Source of the DNA: an uncultured Flavobacteriaceae bacterium
GTDB taxonomy: Bacteria > Bacteroidota > Bacteroidia > Flavobacteriales > Flavobacteriaceae
Length of the DNA stretch: 64,000 nt
Direction: 5' to 3'
Assembly: GCA_947495135.1 (NCBI GenBank)
Contig: CANLXN010000012.1
Coordinates: 1-64,000 of the forward strand
This document shows, piece after piece, positions 45,916 through 56,488 of this stretch. The translations under genes and the position numbers were made by a program. Numbering within the stretch: the stretch's first letter is position 1; every line of letters begins with the position of its first letter. The notes beneath the pieces are model-generated. The model was given only the letters and a program-made list of their open reading frames with translations. It was not told the DNA's origin and ran no database searches.

Positions 45916-48900
45916 TTATTCTTTCATAACCCTCTTTGCGACAGTGCCGCTTTCAGAAGAAATCATCAAAACATAGGTGGCACTTGCAAGGCCCTCTAAA
46001 TCTATTGTAACCTTACTCTTTTGTGGAGTAATAGTCTGTATTATTCTTCCCTGCAAATCTCTTAACTCCACTTTTGAGATGAGCTCCTCCGCTACACTAA
46101 GAATTTGAATTAAGCCAGAAGTTGGATTAGGATACACTACTAGTTTGGACGCTAGTGAATTGTCTGCTGCAGACAAGACTGCTGCTTCAAAAAACACTGT
46201 AAATCTTTCGTTATAAGATCCGACACTGCTTGTAAACGAATAACTGTCTTCACTAAGATTGGTTACTATACCCGTTGAATTATCTAACAAATATACCGTT
46301 GCGTTTTCAATATTAGGTCCTGCAACATCTTCAATACTAATTTTATAGTTATAGCCTAATTCTTCTCCCATTTGTGTAGCAAAACCCATTGGAATCTGCA
46401 TTTCGGTATCAAAAAGCCCTCTGGTTTGGATTCCTAATTCATGGCTTCCGTCATCCAAATGGGTGTAAAGAGATACGACCGTTCCCAATCTTTTGGTATC
46501 GTATCCCTCATCTAATTCTGCACTTCCTTCGACTGCAAAGGCCATTCCAGTAAATGCACCTATTCCTGTACTCGGGTTTCTAACTTCTAAAGTTAAAGTT
46601 TCTATAGGGGTGCTTTGTGGACTTCTTAAAGTGGTATTCCCGCTTGTAAGACGCATACTATTGTTAAAGCTAATGGTGCCTGTTGAACCCGCTACGCCTG
46701 CTGTTCGAATACCGAATCCCTGTCCAGTAGAAACAACATTATTAGGCGGGCTACCTCCATTGGCTGCAGCAACTCCCATGCCCATATTACGAATTGAAAT
46801 ATCATCCATATCAAAACGCAAGTTCGAGCCAGACAAACCTGTTCCTGGAGGTGTTATATGTTCCCAAAAATACAATGCTGTCAATCCGTTATTAGTCATA
46901 AAAGCATCTGCTGAAATCGCAGAAGGGTATGGATTGGAAACCACGTTTGGAGTGCCATCTGGATTAGCAGTTGGACCGTTATTTGTGTTAGTATATGAAA
47001 CAACTCCGTTATTGAACACACCTCTTTCGTGTGTAAAGTTGTAGCTCATATTTGCAGGGTCTGACCAGCCATTTTGTGGACGTACTACGTATCCTTTTCC
47101 TGGTTCAATGGAGCCCGAGGTTAAATTGTTATAAAAGTTACCATCGTCATCTGCCCAGTTAGTGCCTCCTGCTGGAACATCTGGATGTGGTAAAAAATTA
47201 GCGGGTGTAAAGCCTAAGACCATAAAAGCACTGTTGTATACTCCTGTGCGAGTTTCGTCCGTCATGGGAGTTCCCATTACCATAAAGTCTCTGGTTTTTA
47301 ACACTGGAGTAGTTAACTCCACTTGAATAGTTCCGCTCGCTCCATTCTTTGTAACCACTGCACTATCGTCTAATTGTCTAACAGTACCTTGATGGCGAAC
47401 AATTAAGCTTCCGTTGTTTACTGAAATATCTCCTTGCACATCTACATACATATTGGCTGTAACCACAAACTGCGCTCCGTCGTCTACAGTTAATTTACAG
47501 GCTTCTAGATTCCCGTTTACACTTGTGTTATAATTTCCCGTAATCATTACTTGATTGCCGCTTCCAGGAGCTCCGGTTGGTGACCAGCTCGTTCCATTCC
47601 ATGTTTTCAATGCTCCAAGACAACTTGGGACAAATGCTTCCATTGGACCAAAATAGTAGGTTCCATTTAGGCCTGTAAAATTACCTGTGAACGTCACGTT
47701 GTTTCCAAACGATCCTTCAGTTGCAACTGCCGTTTCCACAATAGCTCCACCTACTTCACGCCCAATAATCATATCTGCCGTCGTGTAAGGGGCAACCGCC
47801 GTTTCCCAACCCGAAGCTTCTACATCTGCAAAGTAAAATGTAATTGTAGTATCTCCAGACCCATTGGTGTTTGAGGGTGTTATGGTAAATGTTTTGTCCA
47901 TAACTAAGTCTGGAGAAGCACTTCCGTTATATGTCTGTGCTCCCGCTCCAGATCGTGATACAAAGGTATCTGTACATCCATAATCGAAGCTGTCATTATT
48001 ACTCATACCCATCATCACAAAATTTGAAACGGGATCACTCGAGTATGCATCACCTATTCCATTTAAATTGAGTTGATCTGGTGTTCCAGAATTAGCGGCA
48101 GTTTGAACCACTGCGTCTACTTCTGCAGTGATTTGTACATTGTCTACAGCCATACCGTAAGACCAAGCGCCTCCATCGTTATATCGAAATTGAATTCGTA
48201 CATCGGGCTGACCAATGTAGGGGTTTAAACTAAGTGTTTCCCCATAAACCCAAGGAGTAGTAAACGAACCTCCTCCGTTACTTGTTGATGTGTTTGAAAT
48301 TGTAAGTGCAGATAGAAAAGTGCTTCCCCCATCTGTACTAATTAGCACCTCTGCCGTTTCTGAACCTACATCTGCAAAAGCATGATCAAAAGAAAGAGAT
48401 GCTCCAAGATATCCTGTCGATAAATCAATTGCCGAGGTGGTTAACAAGTCGTTGCTTTTATCACAGTTACAGGCATCATCATTTGTGTAAGCAAATGTTG
48501 TTGTATTCAACCCATCAGTATTCCAATAGGTGCTTGTAGCTCCGGCTGTATCATCAAAGTTCCATGCATCACTTCCATTTCCACTTTGGTTGGTGCTTAC
48601 CTCATAAGGCGCAGTTTCCATGTCTTCCGAAAATAAAGTAACGGTACTTGTCGTAGAAAGTGGAAAGTCGTCATTAGATATTGTAAGCGTGAAAATATTA
48701 TTTGTTGAGCTCATTTCTGCATTACCTCCATTTACGTCTAAAGAAGTATTGATAATGATGGTTTCGTCCAATTCGACATATTCATCATGAAATACTCTTA
48801 CCGTCATGGTTTGAGAAGTTGTGCTACCATTCGTAAAAGTTACACTACTCGTGAGCAATTCGAAATCGGAGTTTTGTGTGGCTGTACTTGCTCCGTCCAC

Positions 48901-51273
48901 ATTAAATGTTACCTCAGCATCTGCGGAAGGTGGATTGGCAATTGTTAGTGTTATGTCGTGATCGGTAAAAGAACAATCTGTATTTTCTAATTGACTTTCA
49001 GCAATGGAAGAAAAAGAAATAACTGGGGTGGTAATATCTGGCTCTAGTGGGGATCGCCATGCTCCACGCCCATAAGTTCCAGCATAAATCTTTTCAGTTG
49101 CAAAATTAATTTCAAGCTCCGTAACTGAAACGTTGGGAAGGTTGTTCGAAAATAATTGCCATTCGGTCACTGTATCGTCGATGTAGTAAATACCATAATT
49201 CATACCTACGTATAAGCGGTTATTTACGCTGTCATCCCAAACGACAGAAAGGGCAGAAAAATTTGGTAGATTAAGTCGTTTTTGAGTCCATGTTGCTCCA
49301 CCGTCTTGGGTGACATACACTTTGTTTGAATCTGTTGTAACCAGTGCAACAACATCCTCATTATTAGGGTGGATGGCTATGCTATTAATAACTCCGCCAA
49401 AGCCTGATGGGGTCGACCAGGACGCGGTAGCACCACCATTGGTTGTTTTATATAGAGTTTCACCAGCAGAAGCATATATCACTTGGTTATTTGTTGGAGC
49501 GATCTTCATTTCGTCCAAATTTCCAGAAACGTTATTAGATATTGCACCCCAACTAGAACCTCCATTGGTCGATTTATACACTTCGCCATAGCCTACGTAA
49601 ATAACATTACTTGTTACAGGGTCCTGTTCAAATGGTGTTACCCAGTTTCCACTGCCAGGAGGAGTAGCTAAGTTGGAACGACTTGCACCTCCATCGACAG
49701 ATTTATACAAAGTTCCTCCTTGGCTTGTTCCATAAAATATATTGCTATTATTCTTGTCGATAAAGCCCTCCATTCCGTCGGCTCCTAACCAATCGAACCA
49801 ATTTCCAGAAGTATTATAAAAAGAGCTTCCGTTGTCTTGGGACCCTCCCACTAGTATTTCTGGATCGGTTTGTGAAACCCCTATTTTATAAAACTGACGT
49901 ATTCCCAGCCCCGCTGTTAAATCGGTATACATATTAAGATCTATAGTGCCATCAGAATCAGGGTTTACAAACAAGCCTCCGTCGCTTCCTACGTATAAGT
50001 CATTTCCTATGAAAGCCATAATATCTACATCTGCATGACAATAACCAACATTTCTAGAAGTTGCCCCTCCTATTGACCAATAGGAGGTCAAGTCAAAACT
50101 AACTCCTCCATTGAGTGACCTCCAAGTGTGTATTCCGGCAATATGAACCTCTTGAACATCGTTTGGAGCAACTACGATGTCCATGTCTCTTGGGGCTTGA
50201 CCACTTGAGTCATTTCCAGTGTCGCTATATCCAAAGTAATTTGCCGAATGGGATAATTCTGTAAATGTTTGTCCGCTGTCTGTAGACTTATAAAGCCCTC
50301 CAAAAATACCATTGTTTTCTTCTACCACATATACAGTGGTTGTACTTCCAGATCCACCATTCACGGTTGAAACGCCTATCATTTTAGTTTGTCCTGCTGT
50401 AAAAGGAGAAGAAATTTGTGCAAAAGATGTTCCGCCATTTGTGGATCTATAGAAGTTATTTCCTGTAGCGTAAATAGTATTAGTATCTCCAGGTTTGAAC
50501 TCAATATCATATCCTGTGGATTCACTAGTAAGTGCGGAAGACCATGATGCTCCTGCATTTGTGCTTCTAAAAATTCCTCCCCCTGCAATACTACAAAACA
50601 TAATATCTGGGGTGGTTGGATGGATTAATATTTTATTGACACTTCCTCCTGGTAGGTTTACCAGCTCATTCCATGTTGTTCCCGCATCTGTCGTAATAAA
50701 AATGACCCCAGAAGTGGAACCCCAATAATAAGTATCTTTATTCACTGGATGAATCGCTAATGCATATACATCCATATTGATAAAGTCGTCTGTTAAAACG
50801 GTCCATGTCGATCCTCCTGTGGTTGTCCTCCATACTCCTCCAGAAGGAGACCCTATAACAATGTGATCCTGATCACTTGGATCTACATCAAAAGAGGTAA
50901 CCCGTCCTACCCCTGGGTTCCAACCAGAAGTTGCGTTCCACGTGGTAGGCCCCATTTCTTCCCAGTTACTAGCTGCGGACATTCTACTTTCTTGAAAGTT
51001 GGCTTTAACAAGCTGAAATTCTTTTAATAAATCTTCAGTAGGTGTAAGAAAGCCTTGCTCATTCATTTTACGACGAGCCATGTACTGCCAACGCTTAAAT
51101 TGTTTGTATCCCGTTCCTTTTCCTTTTCCACGGATCTCGAAATAAGCTTCTGCATTTTCAGAAATTTGAGCGACAGTATAATTTCCTGAGGTAATCATTT
51201 CCTTAAATTCTTGCGCGTTGGACGCAACGGTAGTCGCAAAAAGGATTACAAAAGAAAGTAGGAATTTTTTCAT
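45916..51273 (-). CDS. Giant secreted protein: Asp-box repeats, Calx-beta-like domain, T9SS sorting domain
   Basis: 1785 residues from ATG 51273 ('MKKFLLSFVILFATTVASNAQ' signal peptide); 21 upstream in-frame residues are unlikely. About residues 100-760 hold at least nine Asp-box motifs (for example 'STDAGTTW', 'STNGGSSW', 'TQDGGATW') of a VPS10/sialidase-like propeller. A Calx-beta-like domain follows ('EYVELDETIIINTSL'), then jelly-roll modules, a beta-helix-like stretch ('GDISVNNGSLIVRHQG') and the T9SS sorting domain ('VVYPNPTSGLIQIL' to 'KRVMKE'). No catalytic site is visible; an adhesin-like or glycan-binding surface role is inferred. Confidence 0.9.
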   Translation of the reverse strand: MKKFLLSFVILFATTVASNAQEFKEMITSGNYTVAQISENAEAYFEIRGKGKGTGYKQFKRWQYMARRKMNEQGFLTPTEDLLKEFQLVKANFQESRMSAASNWEEMGPTTWNATSGWNPGVGRVTSFDVDPSDQDHIVIGSPSGGVWRTTTGGSTWTVLTDDFINMDVYALAIHPVNKDTYYWGSTSGVIFITTDAGTTWNELVNLPGGSVNKILIHPTTPDIMFCSIAGGGIFRSTNAGASWSSALTSESTGYDIEFKPGDTNTIYATGNNFYRSTNGGTSFAQISSPFTAGQTKMIGVSTVNGGSGSTTTVYVVEENNGIFGGLYKSTDSGQTFTELSHSANYFGYSDTGNDSSGQAPRDMDIVVAPNDVQEVHIAGIHTWRSLNGGVSFDLTSYWSIGGATSRNVGYCHADVDIMAFIGNDLYVGSDGGLFVNPDSDGTIDLNMYTDLTAGLGIRQFYKIGVSQTDPEILVGGSQDNGSSFYNTSGNWFDWLGADGMEGFIDKNNSNIFYGTSQGGTLYKSVDGGASRSNLATPPGSGNWVTPFEQDPVTSNVIYVGYGEVYKSTNGGSSWGAISNNVSGNLDEMKIAPTNNQVIYASAGETLYKTTNGGATASWSTPSGFGGVINSIAIHPNNEDVVALVTTDSNKVYVTQDGGATWTQKRLNLPNFSALSVVWDDSVNNRLYVGMNYGIYYIDDTVTEWQLFSNNLPNVSVTELEINFATEKIYAGTYGRGAWRSPLEPDITTPVISFSSIAESQLENTDCSFTDHDITLTIANPPSADAEVTFNVDGASTATQNSDFELLTSSVTFTNGSTTSQTMTVRVFHDEYVELDETIIINTSLDVNGGNAEMSSTNNIFTLTISNDDFPLSTTSTVTLFSEDMETAPYEVSTNQSGNGSDAWNFDDTAGATSTYWNTDGLNTTTFAYTNDDACNCDKSNDLLTTSAIDLSTGYLGASLSFDHAFADVGSETAEVLISTDGGSTFLSALTISNTSTSNGGGSFTTPWVYGETLSLNPYIGQPDVRIQFRYNDGGAWSYGMAVDNVQITAEVDAVVQTAANSGTPDQLNLNGIGDAYSSDPVSNFVMMGMSNNDSFDYGCTDTFVSRSGAGAQTYNGSASPDLVMDKTFTITPSNTNGSGDTTITFYFADVEASGWETAVAPYTTADMIIGREVGGAIVETAVATEGSFGNNVTFTGNFTGLNGTYYFGPMEAFVPSCLGALKTWNGTSWSPTGAPGSGNQVMITGNYNTSVNGNLEACKLTVDDGAQFVVTANMYVDVQGDISVNNGSLIVRHQGTVRQLDDSAVVTKNGASGTIQVELTTPVLKTRDFMVMGTPMTDETRTGVYNSAFMVLGFTPANFLPHPDVPAGGTNWADDDGNFYNNLTSGSIEPGKGYVVRPQNGWSDPANMSYNFTHERGVFNNGVVSYTNTNNGPTANPDGTPNVVSNPYPSAISADAFMTNNGLTALYFWEHITPPGTGLSGSNLRFDMDDISIRNMGMGVAAANGGSPPNNVVSTGQGFGIRTAGVAGSTGTISFNNSMRLTSGNTTLRSPQSTPIETLTLEVRNPSTGIGAFTGMAFAVEGSAELDEGYDTKRLGTVVSLYTHLDDGSHELGIQTRGLFDTEMQIPMGFATQMGEELGYNYKISIEDVAGPNIENATVYLLDNSTGIVTNLSEDSYSFTSSVGSYNERFTVFFEAAVLSAADNSLASKLVVYPNPTSGLIQILSVAEELISKVELRDLQGRIIQTITPQKSKVTIDLEGLASATYVLMISSESGTVAKRVMKE

Positions 51274-51427
51274 GGTAGTTATTTTTTTGGTGCTTTTTTT
51301 CTTTAAGTAAAGCACATTAATTATCCCCATCTTCATTTCAAATAAAGAAGATAGTTCTCATAAATAGGTTTTTGAGGCGGGTAAATATAAAAAAATTACT
51401 GACTGTAAGTCGTTTTTGATTTATAAA

Positions 51428-52801: not shown

Positions 52802-53233
52802 TTATGAGCAGGCTATTTTATCTACTCGGTTTTGATGTCGTCCACCTTCGAATTGGGTATTTAAAAATGTTTCTACCATTTTCAAAGCCTGGGGAATTGC
52901 CGTAAATCTTGCAGGAATGCACAGAATATTAGCATCATTATGAAGACGAATAAGTTCCACTATTTCGTTGGTCCAACAAATTCCTGCGCGTACTTCGGCG
53001 TATTTATTAGCAGTCATTGCTACACCATTTGCGCTTCCACAAATAAGAATTCCTCTATCCACTGAGCCGTTGGCAACAGCCTTAGCAACTGGGTGTACAA
53101 AATCTGGATAGTCTACACTATCTAATGTATCGGTTCCATGGTTTTCTACTTCTATACCTTTCGATTTTAACAATTCAACAATTGCAAATTTGTAATCGGG
53201 TCCTGCATGATCGTTTCCTATAGCTATTTTCAT
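52802..53233 (-). CDS. rpiB: Ribose-5-phosphate isomerase B
   Basis: 143 residues from ATG 53233; GTG 53239 is an alternative. It has 'IAIGNDHAGPDYKFAIVELLKSKG', the active-site 'CGSANGVAMTANKYAEVRAGICW' and 'RLHNDANILCIPARF'. It interconverts ribose-5-phosphate and ribulose-5-phosphate. First gene of a minus-strand run that begins at the candidate origin. Confidence 0.94.
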   Translation of the reverse strand: MKIAIGNDHAGPDYKFAIVELLKSKGIEVENHGTDTLDSVDYPDFVHPVAKAVANGSVDRGILICGSANGVAMTANKYAEVRAGICWTNEIVELIRLHNDANILCIPARFTAIPQALKMVETFLNTQFEGGRHQNRVDKIACS

Positions 53234-53239
53234 CTTCAC

Positions 53240-53842
53240 TTAGTTTGTTACAAATATAATGACTCTTGTTGATCCATTTTCATATTGTGATTGTTAATAC
53301 AATTACATACCACATAGTTATTAACTTTAGGTATTTATTTGATAATTATAACTTTATATTTTTCAACTTAGAGTTGTCAATTTAGTTAACAAGTATGTTC
53401 ATATTTAAACACTCAAAAAAGATAGAAATATTTGGTAAAATGATTCAAAAAACGAATAGCAAAAATTTAATGGTCTTCACAAATTTTTTAGAGCTCACTT
53501 GTTGTCAACTTATCTTCTAAAATTTTACAGTTAGGAACAAATATGGAGTAAATACTTGTTAAAAAAAGGTTGTTAACTTCGGTTGTTGACAACTGTGAAT
53601 GAAACACTCAATTTACTTATTTATCAGTCTACTAGTATTTTTATATCTTGTTCATAAGCAGACCAAAAAAAAGTATAACTCTTATTCAAAATAAACTATC
53701 AAAAAGTTATACTACATTTCAACACCCCATCATCATCATCATTTTATTTTTAAAATTTATAAAAAAACAAATGATGTATATAATATATGTTGATAACTGT
53801 TATTTTGAATTTGAAAATTTCAGAATTACTTAGAAAGAAGAA
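53240..53842. other. Candidate replication origin (oriC-like AT-rich region)
   Basis: 603 bases without a credible gene. They hold a perfect TGTTGATAA (53788-53796) and several near copies: TGTTGATCC (53267-53275), TGTTAATAC (53292-53300), GTTATTAAC (53318-53326), TGTTGTCAA (53500-53508), TGTTAACTT (53571-53579) and TGTTGACAA (53584-53592). These differ by one or a few bases from the DnaA box TGTGGATAA. An AT-rich stretch (53690-53820) could unwind. Genes diverge around it, and G/C skew changes sign here. Alternatively it is only an AT-rich spacer. Confidence 0.55.
53251..53258 (-). promoter_or_regulatory. Candidate -7 box for rpiB
   Basis: TATATTTG on the minus strand matches TAnnTTTG, 18 bases before the ATG at 53233. 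No TTG at the usual spacing. Confidence 0.4.
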
Positions 53843-54085
53843 TTAAACAATTCGTAGATCTGACGAATTATTTAAATGATCTATAATACCTTCTGCGGCC
53901 GCGATATCATCCAAATGAACCTTTAAAAGGATGCCTCCTAATGCATTGGAGTGAAAAGGAAGTACACTGATCATAGTTTCGTTTTGAAAAACAAAACGTA
54001 TATTGCGCTGCTGTAGCAGGTGTTTGAGCACCGCATACTCGCTTGGGTAGGTAAATATTGCTATAGTTTTGTAGTCTTCCATCAT
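53843..54085 (-). CDS. DUF2007-type putative signal-transducing protein
   Basis: 80 residues; ATG 54085 or 54082, or GTG 54088. 'IAIFTYPSEYAVLKHLLQQRNIRFVFQNE' and 'GGILLKVHLDDIAAAEGIIDHL' match the DUF2007 pattern of a small alpha-beta domain. Cytoplasmic, role unknown. It stands alone between the candidate origin and rnr. Confidence 0.8.
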   Translation of the reverse strand: MMEDYKTIAIFTYPSEYAVLKHLLQQRNIRFVFQNETMISVLPFHSNALGGILLKVHLDDIAAAEGIIDHLNNSSDLRIV

Positions 54086-54271
54086 CACTAAATTACAAAA
54101 ATTTTAAACCCTAAAATTAAAGGGAACAATTATTCACGTTTATTAAATCTATTAGACTATTTACAAGATTAAGTCATTAATGGAAATCACTTTAACAAAT
54201 TAACAAACTTTAGAAATAGTTAAAGACCATTTACTTAATAAACGTATTTTTAAATATTATAATAAATAACT

Positions 54272-56488
54272 ATGCCGAAAAGACATAAAAGCAGAAAGAA
54301 AACACAACACCCAGAAGGATTATCACAAAAGATTTTAGAAATACTTAGAAAAGACAGATCCCAAGGATTTAATTATAAACAGATTTCAGCAAAACTTAAA
54401 CTAGACGATGCTAGTAGTAGAAATCAAATCATAAAAAATTTAAAGAATTTACAAGGAAAAGGAACACTTCAAGAAATTGACAGAGGAAAATATATTCTTG
54501 CTCCGTCTATGAATTACCATACCGGTATCCTCGATGTTAACTCACGAGGCACTGGATATGTAATAGTAGAAGGAATGGAAAAAGACATTTTCGTCAATAC
54601 CAAAAATTTAAACAAAGGTCTTAAAGGAGATGTAGTAGAAGTTTACGTATTTAAACGAAAAAAGAGTGGTAAAATCGAAGGAGAAATCACTAAAATTTTA
54701 GAAAGAAAAAGAACAGAATTTGTTGGAACTATTAGTATTTCAGACCGATTTGCGTTTGTAGAATGTACTGGATATAATATGTATACCGATATATTCATTC
54801 CTAAGAGCCAAATTAATAAAGCAGAAAACGGTGATAAGGTCCTAGTTAAAATGGAGGGTTGGGAAGAAAATAGTGATTCTCCGATAGGAACAGTACTTAA
54901 AGTACTTGGAAAACCTGGAGAACACAATACGGAGATTCATTCGATTTTAGCTCAATATGGATTGCCATATGAGTTTCCACCTGAAGTGGAAGCATATGCA
55001 GATAACTTGGATACTTCAATTCAACCTTCAGAAATAAAGAAAAGAAGGGATATGCGTAAAACGCTCACCTTTACAATAGATCCAAAAGATGCGAAAGATT
55101 TTGATGATGCATTGTCTTTTGAAAAGTTGGAAAATGGAAATTATGAAATAGGAATTCATATTGCCGATGTTTCACATTACCTAGTTCCAGGAACGGTATT
55201 AGACGATGAAGCTTTCGAACGAGCCACCTCTGTTTATCTAGTAGATCGAGTGGTTCCAATGTTACCAGAAGTATTATCTAACAATGCGTGTTCATTAAGA
55301 CCTCATGAGGAAAAATATACATTCTCTGCCGTTTTTGAAATGAACCATAAAGCAGAAGTTGTTGATAAGTGGTTTGGAAGAACTGTTACTTATAGTGATG
55401 CCAGATTTGCGTATGAAGAGGCGCAACATTTAATAGAAAATCCAAAAAGTTTAACGATTCCGAAAGATATTTCAATTACGGATAAAGCCTATGATGTAGA
55501 TCCTGCAATTGCCGAAGCAACCTTGGAATTGGATCGTTTAGCAAAAGTATTACGTTCTAAACGAATGCGAGCTGGAGCCATTTCTTTTGATAAGGTGGAA
55601 GTTAAATTTCGTTTGGATGAACATAATGAACCAGAAGGAGTTTATTTCAAAGAAAGTAAGGATGCCAATAAGCTAATTGAAGAGTTTATGCTTTTAGCAA
55701 ATAGAAGTGTAGCAGAATTTATAGGAAAACAAAGCCCTACTAAAACTTTTGTTTACCGTGTTCACGATGAGCCGGATGATGAAAAAATTGCGGCTTTAGA
55801 GAATATTATTCGCAGATTTGGATATAAGTTAAACACTCAGGATAAAAATTCTACTTCTCAATCTTTGAATAAACTTTTGAAAGATGTAAACGGAAAAAAA
55901 GAGCAGAATTTGATTGATACACTGGCAATAAGAAGTATGAGCAAGGCTGTTTATACTACCAATAATATTGGTCATTACGGACTAGCATTCGATTATTATT
56001 CTCATTTCACATCTCCAATTAGACGTTATCCCGATGTGATGGTGCATCGATTATTACAGCATTATTTGGATGGTGGAAAAAATGCAGATTCTTCAGAATA
56101 CGAAGATAAGTGTAAACATTCCAGCGATATGGAATATTTAGCTTCCAGTGCAGAAAGGGATAGTATTAAGTATATGCAGGTGAAGTATATGATGGATCAT
56201 CAGGACCAGGATTTCTTAGGAGTTATTTCTGGTGTTACTGAATGGGGAATTTATATAGAAATTATATCAAATAAATGTGAAGGAATGGTGCGTCTTGGAG
56301 ATCTTCAGGGTGATCATTTTACTTTCGATAAAGAAGAATATGCTGTAGTCGGAGATAGAACAGGAAAAAAATTCACATTGGGAGATGAAGTCTATGTTAA
56401 AGTGAAAAATGCCGATTTAGTAAAGAAGAATTTAGATTTTACCATGTTGGGATCTAAGGAAGAATATACACCTAAAGATATGTATTAG
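54272..56488 (+). CDS. rnr: Ribonuclease R
   Basis: 738 residues. An N-terminal winged-helix-like part (about 10-75) is followed by cold-shock domains, the RNB domain ('TFTIDPKDAKDFDDALSFE', about 267-285, with the catalytic Asp residues) and a C-terminal S1 domain ('GVISGVTEWGIYIEI', about 650). It degrades structured RNA from the 3' end. Confidence 0.96.
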   Translation: MPKRHKSRKKTQHPEGLSQKILEILRKDRSQGFNYKQISAKLKLDDASSRNQIIKNLKNLQGKGTLQEIDRGKYILAPSMNYHTGILDVNSRGTGYVIVEGMEKDIFVNTKNLNKGLKGDVVEVYVFKRKKSGKIEGEITKILERKRTEFVGTISISDRFAFVECTGYNMYTDIFIPKSQINKAENGDKVLVKMEGWEENSDSPIGTVLKVLGKPGEHNTEIHSILAQYGLPYEFPPEVEAYADNLDTSIQPSEIKKRRDMRKTLTFTIDPKDAKDFDDALSFEKLENGNYEIGIHIADVSHYLVPGTVLDDEAFERATSVYLVDRVVPMLPEVLSNNACSLRPHEEKYTFSAVFEMNHKAEVVDKWFGRTVTYSDARFAYEEAQHLIENPKSLTIPKDISITDKAYDVDPAIAEATLELDRLAKVLRSKRMRAGAISFDKVEVKFRLDEHNEPEGVYFKESKDANKLIEEFMLLANRSVAEFIGKQSPTKTFVYRVHDEPDDEKIAALENIIRRFGYKLNTQDKNSTSQSLNKLLKDVNGKKEQNLIDTLAIRSMSKAVYTTNNIGHYGLAFDYYSHFTSPIRRYPDVMVHRLLQHYLDGGKNADSSEYEDKCKHSSDMEYLASSAERDSIKYMQVKYMMDHQDQDFLGVISGVTEWGIYIEIISNKCEGMVRLGDLQGDHFTFDKEEYAVVGDRTGKKFTLGDEVYVKVKNADLVKKNLDFTMLGSKEEYTPKDMY

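What the first reader, a model, noticed from the sequence alone, without database searches (positions are those of the whole stretch)
53240..53842. Likely chromosomal replication origin between rpiB and rnr, without dnaA nearby
This AT-rich gap holds a perfect TGTTGATAA (53788-53796) and at least six near copies (positions in the feature entry), one base or a few away from the DnaA box TGTGGATAA. Genes left of it run mostly on the minus strand for 9 kb, genes right of it mostly on the plus strand. I counted G and C in single 60-base lines: plus-strand genes on the left show C above G (line 42421 G12/C14; line 43741 G9/C15), and the right shows G well above C (56161 G16/C6; 57421 G15/C9; 59581 G17/C6), even inside a minus-strand gene (61261 G13/C7). 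This is the pattern of an origin. rnpA, often near origins, is 13 kb away.
Basis: partly seen in the sequence, partly recalled or inferred. Interest (0 to 1): 0.7.

Follow-up and report, generated by a model that had tools for sequence, protein, structure and literature searches.

The report
Chromosome replication origin beside rpiB and rnr
This short AT-rich gap is almost certainly where this marine bacterium starts copying its chromosome, far from the gene for the starter protein DnaA; it holds a roughly 100-letter core shared by most of the relatives examined, which may show how the DNA is opened.

Summary
The window comes from a Flavobacteriaceae draft genome (nearest named Rnr match Aureisphaera galaxeae, 83%). 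The 151-kb contig's cumulative GC-skew minimum is at 54,545. In three complete relatives sampled skew changes sign at or near rpiB. The genome's only exact parS-type site is 20 kb away. dnaA is on another contig; in 20 of 20 complete relatives it lies 0.20-0.48 of the circle from rpiB. The gap holds a 108-bp core (53698-53805), aligned in 90 of 101 sequences, single at high score in the own genome and in 19 of 20 complete relatives: boxes pointing right, five A-centred trinucleotides, 45 bp at 7% GC, one box pointing left. The mnmG site named for two other Flavobacteriaceae does not fit the skew here. That Bacteroidetes oriC lies far from dnaA is in print; the listings of my nine paper searches showed nothing on this core. 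Least certain: the trinucleotide array is better conserved on the strand opposite to that of the DnaA-trio model. DnaA binding and origin activity are inferred, not shown.

The parts
53240..53842 (.). oriC candidate: intergenic gap, 23% GC, cluster of DnaA-box-like sites
   Evidence: 77 relatives' gaps plus the window are enriched for TATTAACA and TATCAACA
53698..53805 (+). conserved origin core (108 bp)
   Evidence: alignment A1 of 90 sequences; model R1 E=5.2e-17 here, next separate place in the genome E=0.0028; an HMM built from the other 89 rows finds it on the contig at E=3e-17
53707..53715 (+). outer left box-like site (its TTAT conserved in 93-100%), pointing right
   Evidence: column table
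53716..53724 (+). inner left box, ATTTCAACA here; 59 of 90 aligned sequences match (T/C)TAT(T/C)(A/C)ACA exactly, the window does not; pointing right
53728..53742 (+). trinucleotide array (CAT)5; over the alignment NAN x5 with A in 90-100% of sequences at 53729, 53732, 53735, 53738, 53741
53743..53787 (.). AT-rich stretch (6.7% GC), proposed DNA unwinding element
   Evidence: function inferred
53788..53796 (-). right box TGTTGATAA (TTATCAACA on the minus strand), pointing left; TGTGGATAA in 16 of 90 aligned sequences
53319..53592 (.). further box-like sites: TATTAAC 53319, GTTAACA 53385, TGTCAAC 53503, TGTTAAC 53571, TGTTGACAA 53584
52802..53239 (-). rpiB, ribose-5-phosphate isomerase B (left neighbour)
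   Evidence: Pfam PF02502 E=1.9e-54
53843..54088 (-). 81-aa ORF without a Pfam match, present at this place in part of the relatives
54272..56488 (+). rnr, ribonuclease R (right neighbour); the contig's skew minimum 54,545 lies just inside it
   Evidence: Pfam PF00773

Best explanation
The gap is the chromosomal replication origin (oriC). Proposed working, all inferred: DnaA, made from a gene elsewhere on the chromosome, binds the lineage's boxes (commonest form (T/C)TAT(T/C)(A/C)ACA) in the gap. DnaA on the convergent left and right boxes of the 108-bp core, usually 62-64 bp apart, opens the 45-bp AT-rich stretch between them and holds one strand through the NAN array. Helicases are loaded and two forks leave, one through rnr, one through rpiB. 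parS sites 20-26 kb away would let ParB segregate this region. Shown here: skew transition, box cluster, conserved single core, nearby parS-type sites, dnaA elsewhere.
For: Contig C12 (151 kb) has its cumulative-skew minimum at 54,545; skew is +0.118 from 53.8 to 73.7 kb and +0.058 to +0.107 in the three bins from 75.6 kb on, against -0.050 (40.0-53.2 kb), +0.016 (20-40 kb) and -0.059 (1-20 kb) on the left. In G050, G062 and G109 (3 of 20 complete genomes, 20 stretches of 20 kb each) the best-fitting sign change is at rpiB in two and one step (about 165 kb) off in G062, where rpiB scores slightly lower. In the 8-kb flanks of rpiB skew rises from the rpiB side to the rnr side in 19 of 20 complete genomes, in two by less than 0.01. 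Exact parS-type sites occur in 17 of 21 genomes and in all 17 lie within 55 kb of the best core match (in G020 that match is weak). rpiB and rnr face away from a shared gap in 86 of 100 loci. TATTAACA occurs 178 times in 78 gaps against 16 in shuffles. R1 has one strong place in the own genome and in 19 of 20 complete genomes, 0.37-0.64 kb upstream of rpiB in those 19. 17 of the 20 gave rows to the model, so only G085 and G115 (E 9.6e-9 and 3.6e-8) are independent strong finds among them. In G020, where rpiB and rnr have separated, the only match at E<=0.1 (weak, 0.017) sits before rnr, 5-7 kb from its three exact parS-type sites.
Against: No replication or DnaA-binding experiment exists here. 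G000 is a 45-contig draft, so its whole-chromosome minimum cannot be read. The rpiB side is near zero, not clearly negative, in the next 20 kb of five relatives (-0.011, +0.010, +0.028, +0.015, +0.003), negative in the 8-kb flank in only 8 of 20, and in G107 the flanks run the wrong way (+0.125 to -0.012); local minima in the 20-kb stretches scatter. Skew alone thus places the origin only to tens of kb. Eight of 100 loci lack the synteny although sequence is there (L055, L106-L108, L123, L125, L133, L151), and in L125 and L133 no core was found beside rnr. In G020 two searches put the weak match about 140 bp apart. The window's left boxes are degenerate. Ori-Finder put oriC at mnmG in two other Flavobacteriaceae.
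Confidence: 0.92

Rival explanations
1. The origin is at mnmG, 20 kb to the right, where the parS-type sites lie; the rpiB/rnr gap is only a neighbouring regulatory region.
For: Two Flavobacteriaceae papers name the region at mnmG as oriC by Ori-Finder (passages read; a figure legend of the first swaps the oriC and ter labels). parS-type sites flank mnmG in 16 of the 17 genomes with exact sites.
Against: Between gap and mnmG the skew already has the rnr-side sign in 9 of 10 stretches (own genome and five relatives; the exception is -0.009 in G029). Exact boxes are rare in the 20 mnmG loci (at most 2 in 4.85 kb). In G020 mnmG is 278 kb from the parS-type sites, while rnr and the weak core match stay beside them.
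Confidence: 0.05
2. The gap is a divergent promoter region with operators of an ordinary regulator of rpiB and rnr.
For: Divergent genes share it; many sites read as the near-palindrome GTTRTYAAC.
Against: The core has one strong place per genome, keeps 62-64 bp between its boxes in 87 of 90 sequences, is found before a different right-hand gene in genomes of another family (L289, L292), and coincides with the skew change and parS-type sites.
Confidence: 0.02
3. The origin is next to dnaA, where several deposited records start.
For: In 6 of 20 complete records dnaA lies within the first 1.1 kb.
Against: dnaA is 0.20-0.48 of the circle from rpiB in 20 of 20; sampled skew changes near rpiB in three; the own 3.5-kb dnaA locus has one exact box, inside the gene.
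Confidence: 0.01

Closest known systems
DnaA-dependent bacterial oriC (E. coli, B. subtilis; general features partly recalled, partly PMC13220808 passages)
   Same: DnaA-box cluster, AT-rich stretch, skew minimum, parS-type sites in the neighbourhood
   Different: not beside dnaA; commonest box (T/C)TAT(T/C)(A/C)ACA; flanked by rpiB and rnr
Bacteroidetes oriC as described for Prevotella intermedia (PMC4755523, passages read)
   Same: oriC far from dnaA at a skew transition with DnaA boxes
   Different: the passages read describe no conserved core and no rpiB/rnr context
BUS: DnaA-boxes plus DnaA-trios (PMC8287927, part of one section and passages; PMC8235120 and PMC10721633, passages)
   Same: tandem box-like sites followed after 3-4 nt by about five NAN trinucleotides and an AT-rich stretch
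   Different: the best-conserved A lies on the box strand (5 of 5 columns 90-100%), whereas on the strand the model uses the figures are 99, 100, 33, 71 and 86%; an inverted box closes the far side

Membership tests
bacterial oriC | minimum of cumulative GC skew | tested here: met
   contig minimum 54,545; three complete relatives; resolution tens of kb at best, with local exceptions such as G107
bacterial oriC | cluster of DnaA boxes beyond chance | tested here: met
   met for the lineage form (0 of 1000 shuffles in two counts, about 40 of 1000 in two stricter ones), not for TTATCCACA itself (89 of 1000)
bacterial oriC | AT-rich unwinding element next to boxes | tested here: met
   53743-53787, 6.7% GC; unwinding itself not tested
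bacterial oriC | one per chromosome | tested here: met
   one strong R1 place in the own genome and 19 of 20 complete relatives; the 20th has only a weak one
bacterial oriC | replication starts there in vivo; DnaA binds | not testable with these tools
   needs marker frequency and binding assays
DnaA-trio / BUS | at least three 3'-NAN-5' trios next to a DnaA box on the 5'-tail strand | tested here: inconclusive
   first three A-centred on that strand in 29 of 90 sequences, on the other strand in 81 of 90; a run of three or more anywhere in the array on that strand in 30 of 90. Which strand the box orientation prescribes rests partly on recall
oriC at mnmG | skew change at mnmG | tested here: not met
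   rnr-side sign already present between gap and mnmG in 9 of 10 stretches

The most novel reading that the evidence does not exclude
Class Bacteroidia shares one ancient origin core in which DnaA opens DNA from convergent boxes around an AT-rich stretch and grips a trinucleotide array on the strand opposite to that used in the BUS model, loaded either from the far right box or in reversed polarity from the left boxes, while dnaA itself sits in the late-replicating part of the chromosome.
Probability: 0.25. Interest if true: 0.65.

Novelty: new variant of a known kind. Interest (0 to 1): 0.42.

Why it matters
If right, a one-copy sequence signature finds the origin in draft Flavobacteriaceae genomes without dnaA or a complete skew curve, questions records and papers that place it at dnaA or mnmG, and helps replication-rate estimates from metagenome coverage. 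The strand of the trinucleotide array gives a direct test of how general the DnaA-trio loading rule is.

Tried and rejected
A first pass over rpiB loci ignored strand: loci of the genome search come in contig orientation; those counts were dropped and redone. Local 20-kb skew in single relatives was too noisy to place the origin, hence chromosome-wide sampling. A symmetric EM motif gave a palindrome partly because both strands were counted; single k-mers such as CTATTAACA show that the site is directional. mnmG, dnaA and a plain promoter region were considered and rejected as above. I expected a canonical DnaA-trio; column counts put the best-conserved A on the other strand. The label 'duf2007' in my scripts for the 81-aa ORF is recalled and found no Pfam match; the labels gnat, czcD, lysE and folB are mine, with Pfam support. 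The DnaA-box and parS consensus patterns, the orientation of box R1 in E. coli, the organism of structure 8btg and the role of the Thr of the DH-T-TV motif are recalled.

Dropped rows: 9 of 86 gaps longer than 1600 bp from the motif counts; 11 of 101 sequences from the alignment: four matched more weakly than E=1e-6 (L066, L072, L137, L151) and seven not at all (L055, L110, L114, L117, L125, L133, L134; four of these end within 0.3 kb of rnr). Loci L002-L032 repeat genomes used elsewhere and were left out of the alignment.

Full report
What was claimed.

Source. The window is contig C12, bases 1-64000, of a 45-contig, 4.29-Mb draft. The nearest named relative by Rnr among the 80 loci returned is Aureisphaera galaxeae (83%), others being Ulvibacter and Aquimarina: family Flavobacteriaceae. 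dnaA is on contig C6; its product matches solved DnaA chains over domain I and over the AAA+ and DNA-binding part.

Checking the observation. The gap is 23.2% GC. All quoted line counts are exact, but the statement that left-hand plus-strand genes have C above G fails for the region as a whole. The contig's cumulative skew minimum is nevertheless at 54,545 over 151 kb. Box-like sites are not enriched against TTATCCACA (6 against 3.1; 89 of 1000 shuffles reach it). They are weakly so against TTATCAACA with one mismatch (3 against 0.8; 41 of 1000) and exact TTRTYMACA (2 against 0.3; 42 of 1000), and clearly so against TTATCAACA with two mismatches (20 against 7.5; 0 of 1000) and the 7-mer TRTYMAC (7 against 1.3; 0 of 1000).

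Relatives. rpiB was found in 118 of 120 family genomes. Of 100 loci with flanks (20 single-contig genomes, 80 contigs of genome contigs), 86 hold rpiB and rnr divergent around a gap. Of the other 14, six are cut by the end of the record near rnr or rpiB (L056, L110, L114, L117, L134, L137) and in eight one gene is not in the stretch (L055, L106-L108, L123, L125, L133, L151). In 78 gaps of at most 1600 bp (77 relatives and the window) TATTAACA occurs 178 times against 16 expected from dinucleotide shuffles, in 74 of 78 gaps. Exact TTATYAACA or TTATCCACA is 17 times denser in the gaps than in the rest of the loci, which is mostly coding and less AT-rich, so part of that ratio is composition.

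Chromosome-wide tests. In 3 of the 20 complete relatives I sampled 20 stretches of 20 kb each around the circle. Going up in coordinates from rpiB the first half is positive in 8, 9 and 6 of 10 stretches and the second half negative in 9, 10 and 9 of 10 (G050, G062, G109); the best boundary is at rpiB in two and one step away in G062. In the 8-kb flanks skew rises from the rpiB side to the rnr side in 19 of 20 genomes, but is negative on the rpiB side in only 8, and in G107 it falls. dnaA lies 0.20-0.48 of the circle from rpiB in 20 of 20 (median 0.34). Exact parS-type sites (pattern recalled) exist in 17 of 21 genomes, in these within 55 kb of the best core match; in the own genome the only exact site and three of the four sites with at most one mismatch are at C12 73.7-80.1 kb, the fourth is on contig C1.

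mnmG as rival. Two papers place oriC at mnmG by Ori-Finder in Flavobacteriaceae (PMC11278836, PMC12843772; passages read). In the genomes tested mnmG lies on the rnr side of the gap; parS-type sites lie at its ends in 16 of the 17 genomes with exact sites. The interval between gap and mnmG already carries rnr-side skew in 9 of 10 stretches over six genomes. In G020 mnmG is 278 kb from the parS-type sites, while rnr and a weak core match stay 5-7 kb from them. The two papers' mnmG label may simply be the nearest indicator gene.

The core. Aligning the gaps showed a conserved block near their rnr end. Ninety of 101 sequences gave alignment A1. Its commonest layout on the plus strand: AAAAAGTTATACC, then (T/C)TAT(T/C)(A/C)ACA (59 of 90 exactly), 3 bases, five trinucleotides with central A in 100, 100, 90, 99 and 100% of sequences, an AT-rich stretch, and TGT(T/G)(G/A)ATAA. 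The two boxes are 62-64 bases apart in 87 of 90. The right box is exactly TGTGGATAA in 16 of 90 and the left exactly CTATCCACA in 4, which ties the lineage form to the classical DnaA box. A sequence-only model (R1) finds the window's core at E=5.2e-17; its reverse reading of the same place has 5.8e-4 and the next separate place 0.0028. In 20 complete genomes the best match is 0.37-0.64 kb upstream of rpiB in 19 (E 6e-18 to 4e-8) and before rnr in G020 (E=0.017); all other matches are 0.0026 or worse, some of them the same core on the other strand. E-values come from a shortened calibration. An HMM built from the 89 other rows finds the window's core on C12 at 3e-17. In L125 and L133, where rpiB is not beside rnr, no core was found.

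Spread. In an order sample 46 of 146 genomes match at E<=0.001; the 28 family members among the listed rows all match, but 80 genomes without a match are not listed. In a class sample 12 of 149 match, four of them family members. Of the 29 best order loci fetched besides the window's own, 28 hold rpiB or rnr within 1.5 kb, including three from another family; L286 does not; the weaker matches were not fetched. Of six class loci, two (L295, L298) lie beside rpiB; L294 and L297 lie between an RNA-methyltransferase-like and a quinolinate-synthase-like ORF (names recalled from the sequences); L296 and L299 near neither. The weak class matches are suggestive only.

The trinucleotide array. In the BUS model DnaA bound at boxes grips 3'-NAN-5' trios on the 5'-tail strand next to the box (PMC8287927, first part of one section and passages; PMC8235120, passages, which report that reversing the array's polarity blocked opening in H. 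pylori). Here the first three trinucleotides are A-centred on that strand in 29 of 90 sequences and on the box strand in 81 of 90; all five in 19 and 80. Either DnaA uses the box strand, or loads from the right box across the AT-rich stretch, or the array serves another factor, or the ordinary strand is used with a degenerate array. This is unresolved, and the assignment of strand to box orientation rests partly on recall.

DnaA. All 21 DnaA loci read here (own and 20 relatives) have DHATV where the solved DnaA 8btg has DHTTV in the DNA-binding domain. That this change goes with the altered box is an inference.

Literature. That Bacteroidetes oriC commonly lies far from dnaA is in print (PMC4755523, passages). 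The Blattabacterium Bge paper reports neither boxes nor dnaA and an origin by skew in dapB (PMC2768785, passages). Passages were also read in PMC5219744, PMC10225481, PMC10721633, PMC13220808, PMC5771137 and PMC4070872; none describes this core. Searches for Bacteroidetes with oriC and rpiB, and for ribose 5-phosphate isomerase B with replication origin and oriC, returned nothing; the listings of the other seven showed no paper on this core. DoriC itself could not be consulted and may hold these gaps as predicted origins.

Verdict. The gap is the origin (0.92). That it is far from dnaA is a known trait of the phylum; the shared core and the strand of its array look new to me.

Noticed in passing
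20 complete relatives: dnaA lies in the terminus-ward part of the circle: more than 0.3 of the circle from rpiB in 18 of 20 genera. Relatedness was not corrected for.
   Followed up: partly
C12 73,701-75,620 (outside the window) and relatives: parS-type sites sit directly at the ends of mnmG in 16 of the 17 genomes that have exact sites; G020 is the exception.
   Followed up: partly
L294 and L297: Core-like sites in distant class members lie in a shared different place, before a quinolinate-synthase-like ORF: possibly the origin of another order.
   Followed up: no
L298, about 1480-1600: The array there is (CAA)5, which keeps A in the middle but has no T, favouring the box-strand reading.
   Followed up: no
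window 45916-51336: 1806-aa secreted-looking protein with what looks like a C-terminal sorting domain, on the minus strand near the origin; judged by eye, no search run.
   Followed up: no
G000 C4:389523-389631 (L263): Weak second match to the core (E=0.0028) in what reads like a transporter ATPase gene; probably chance.
   Followed up: no
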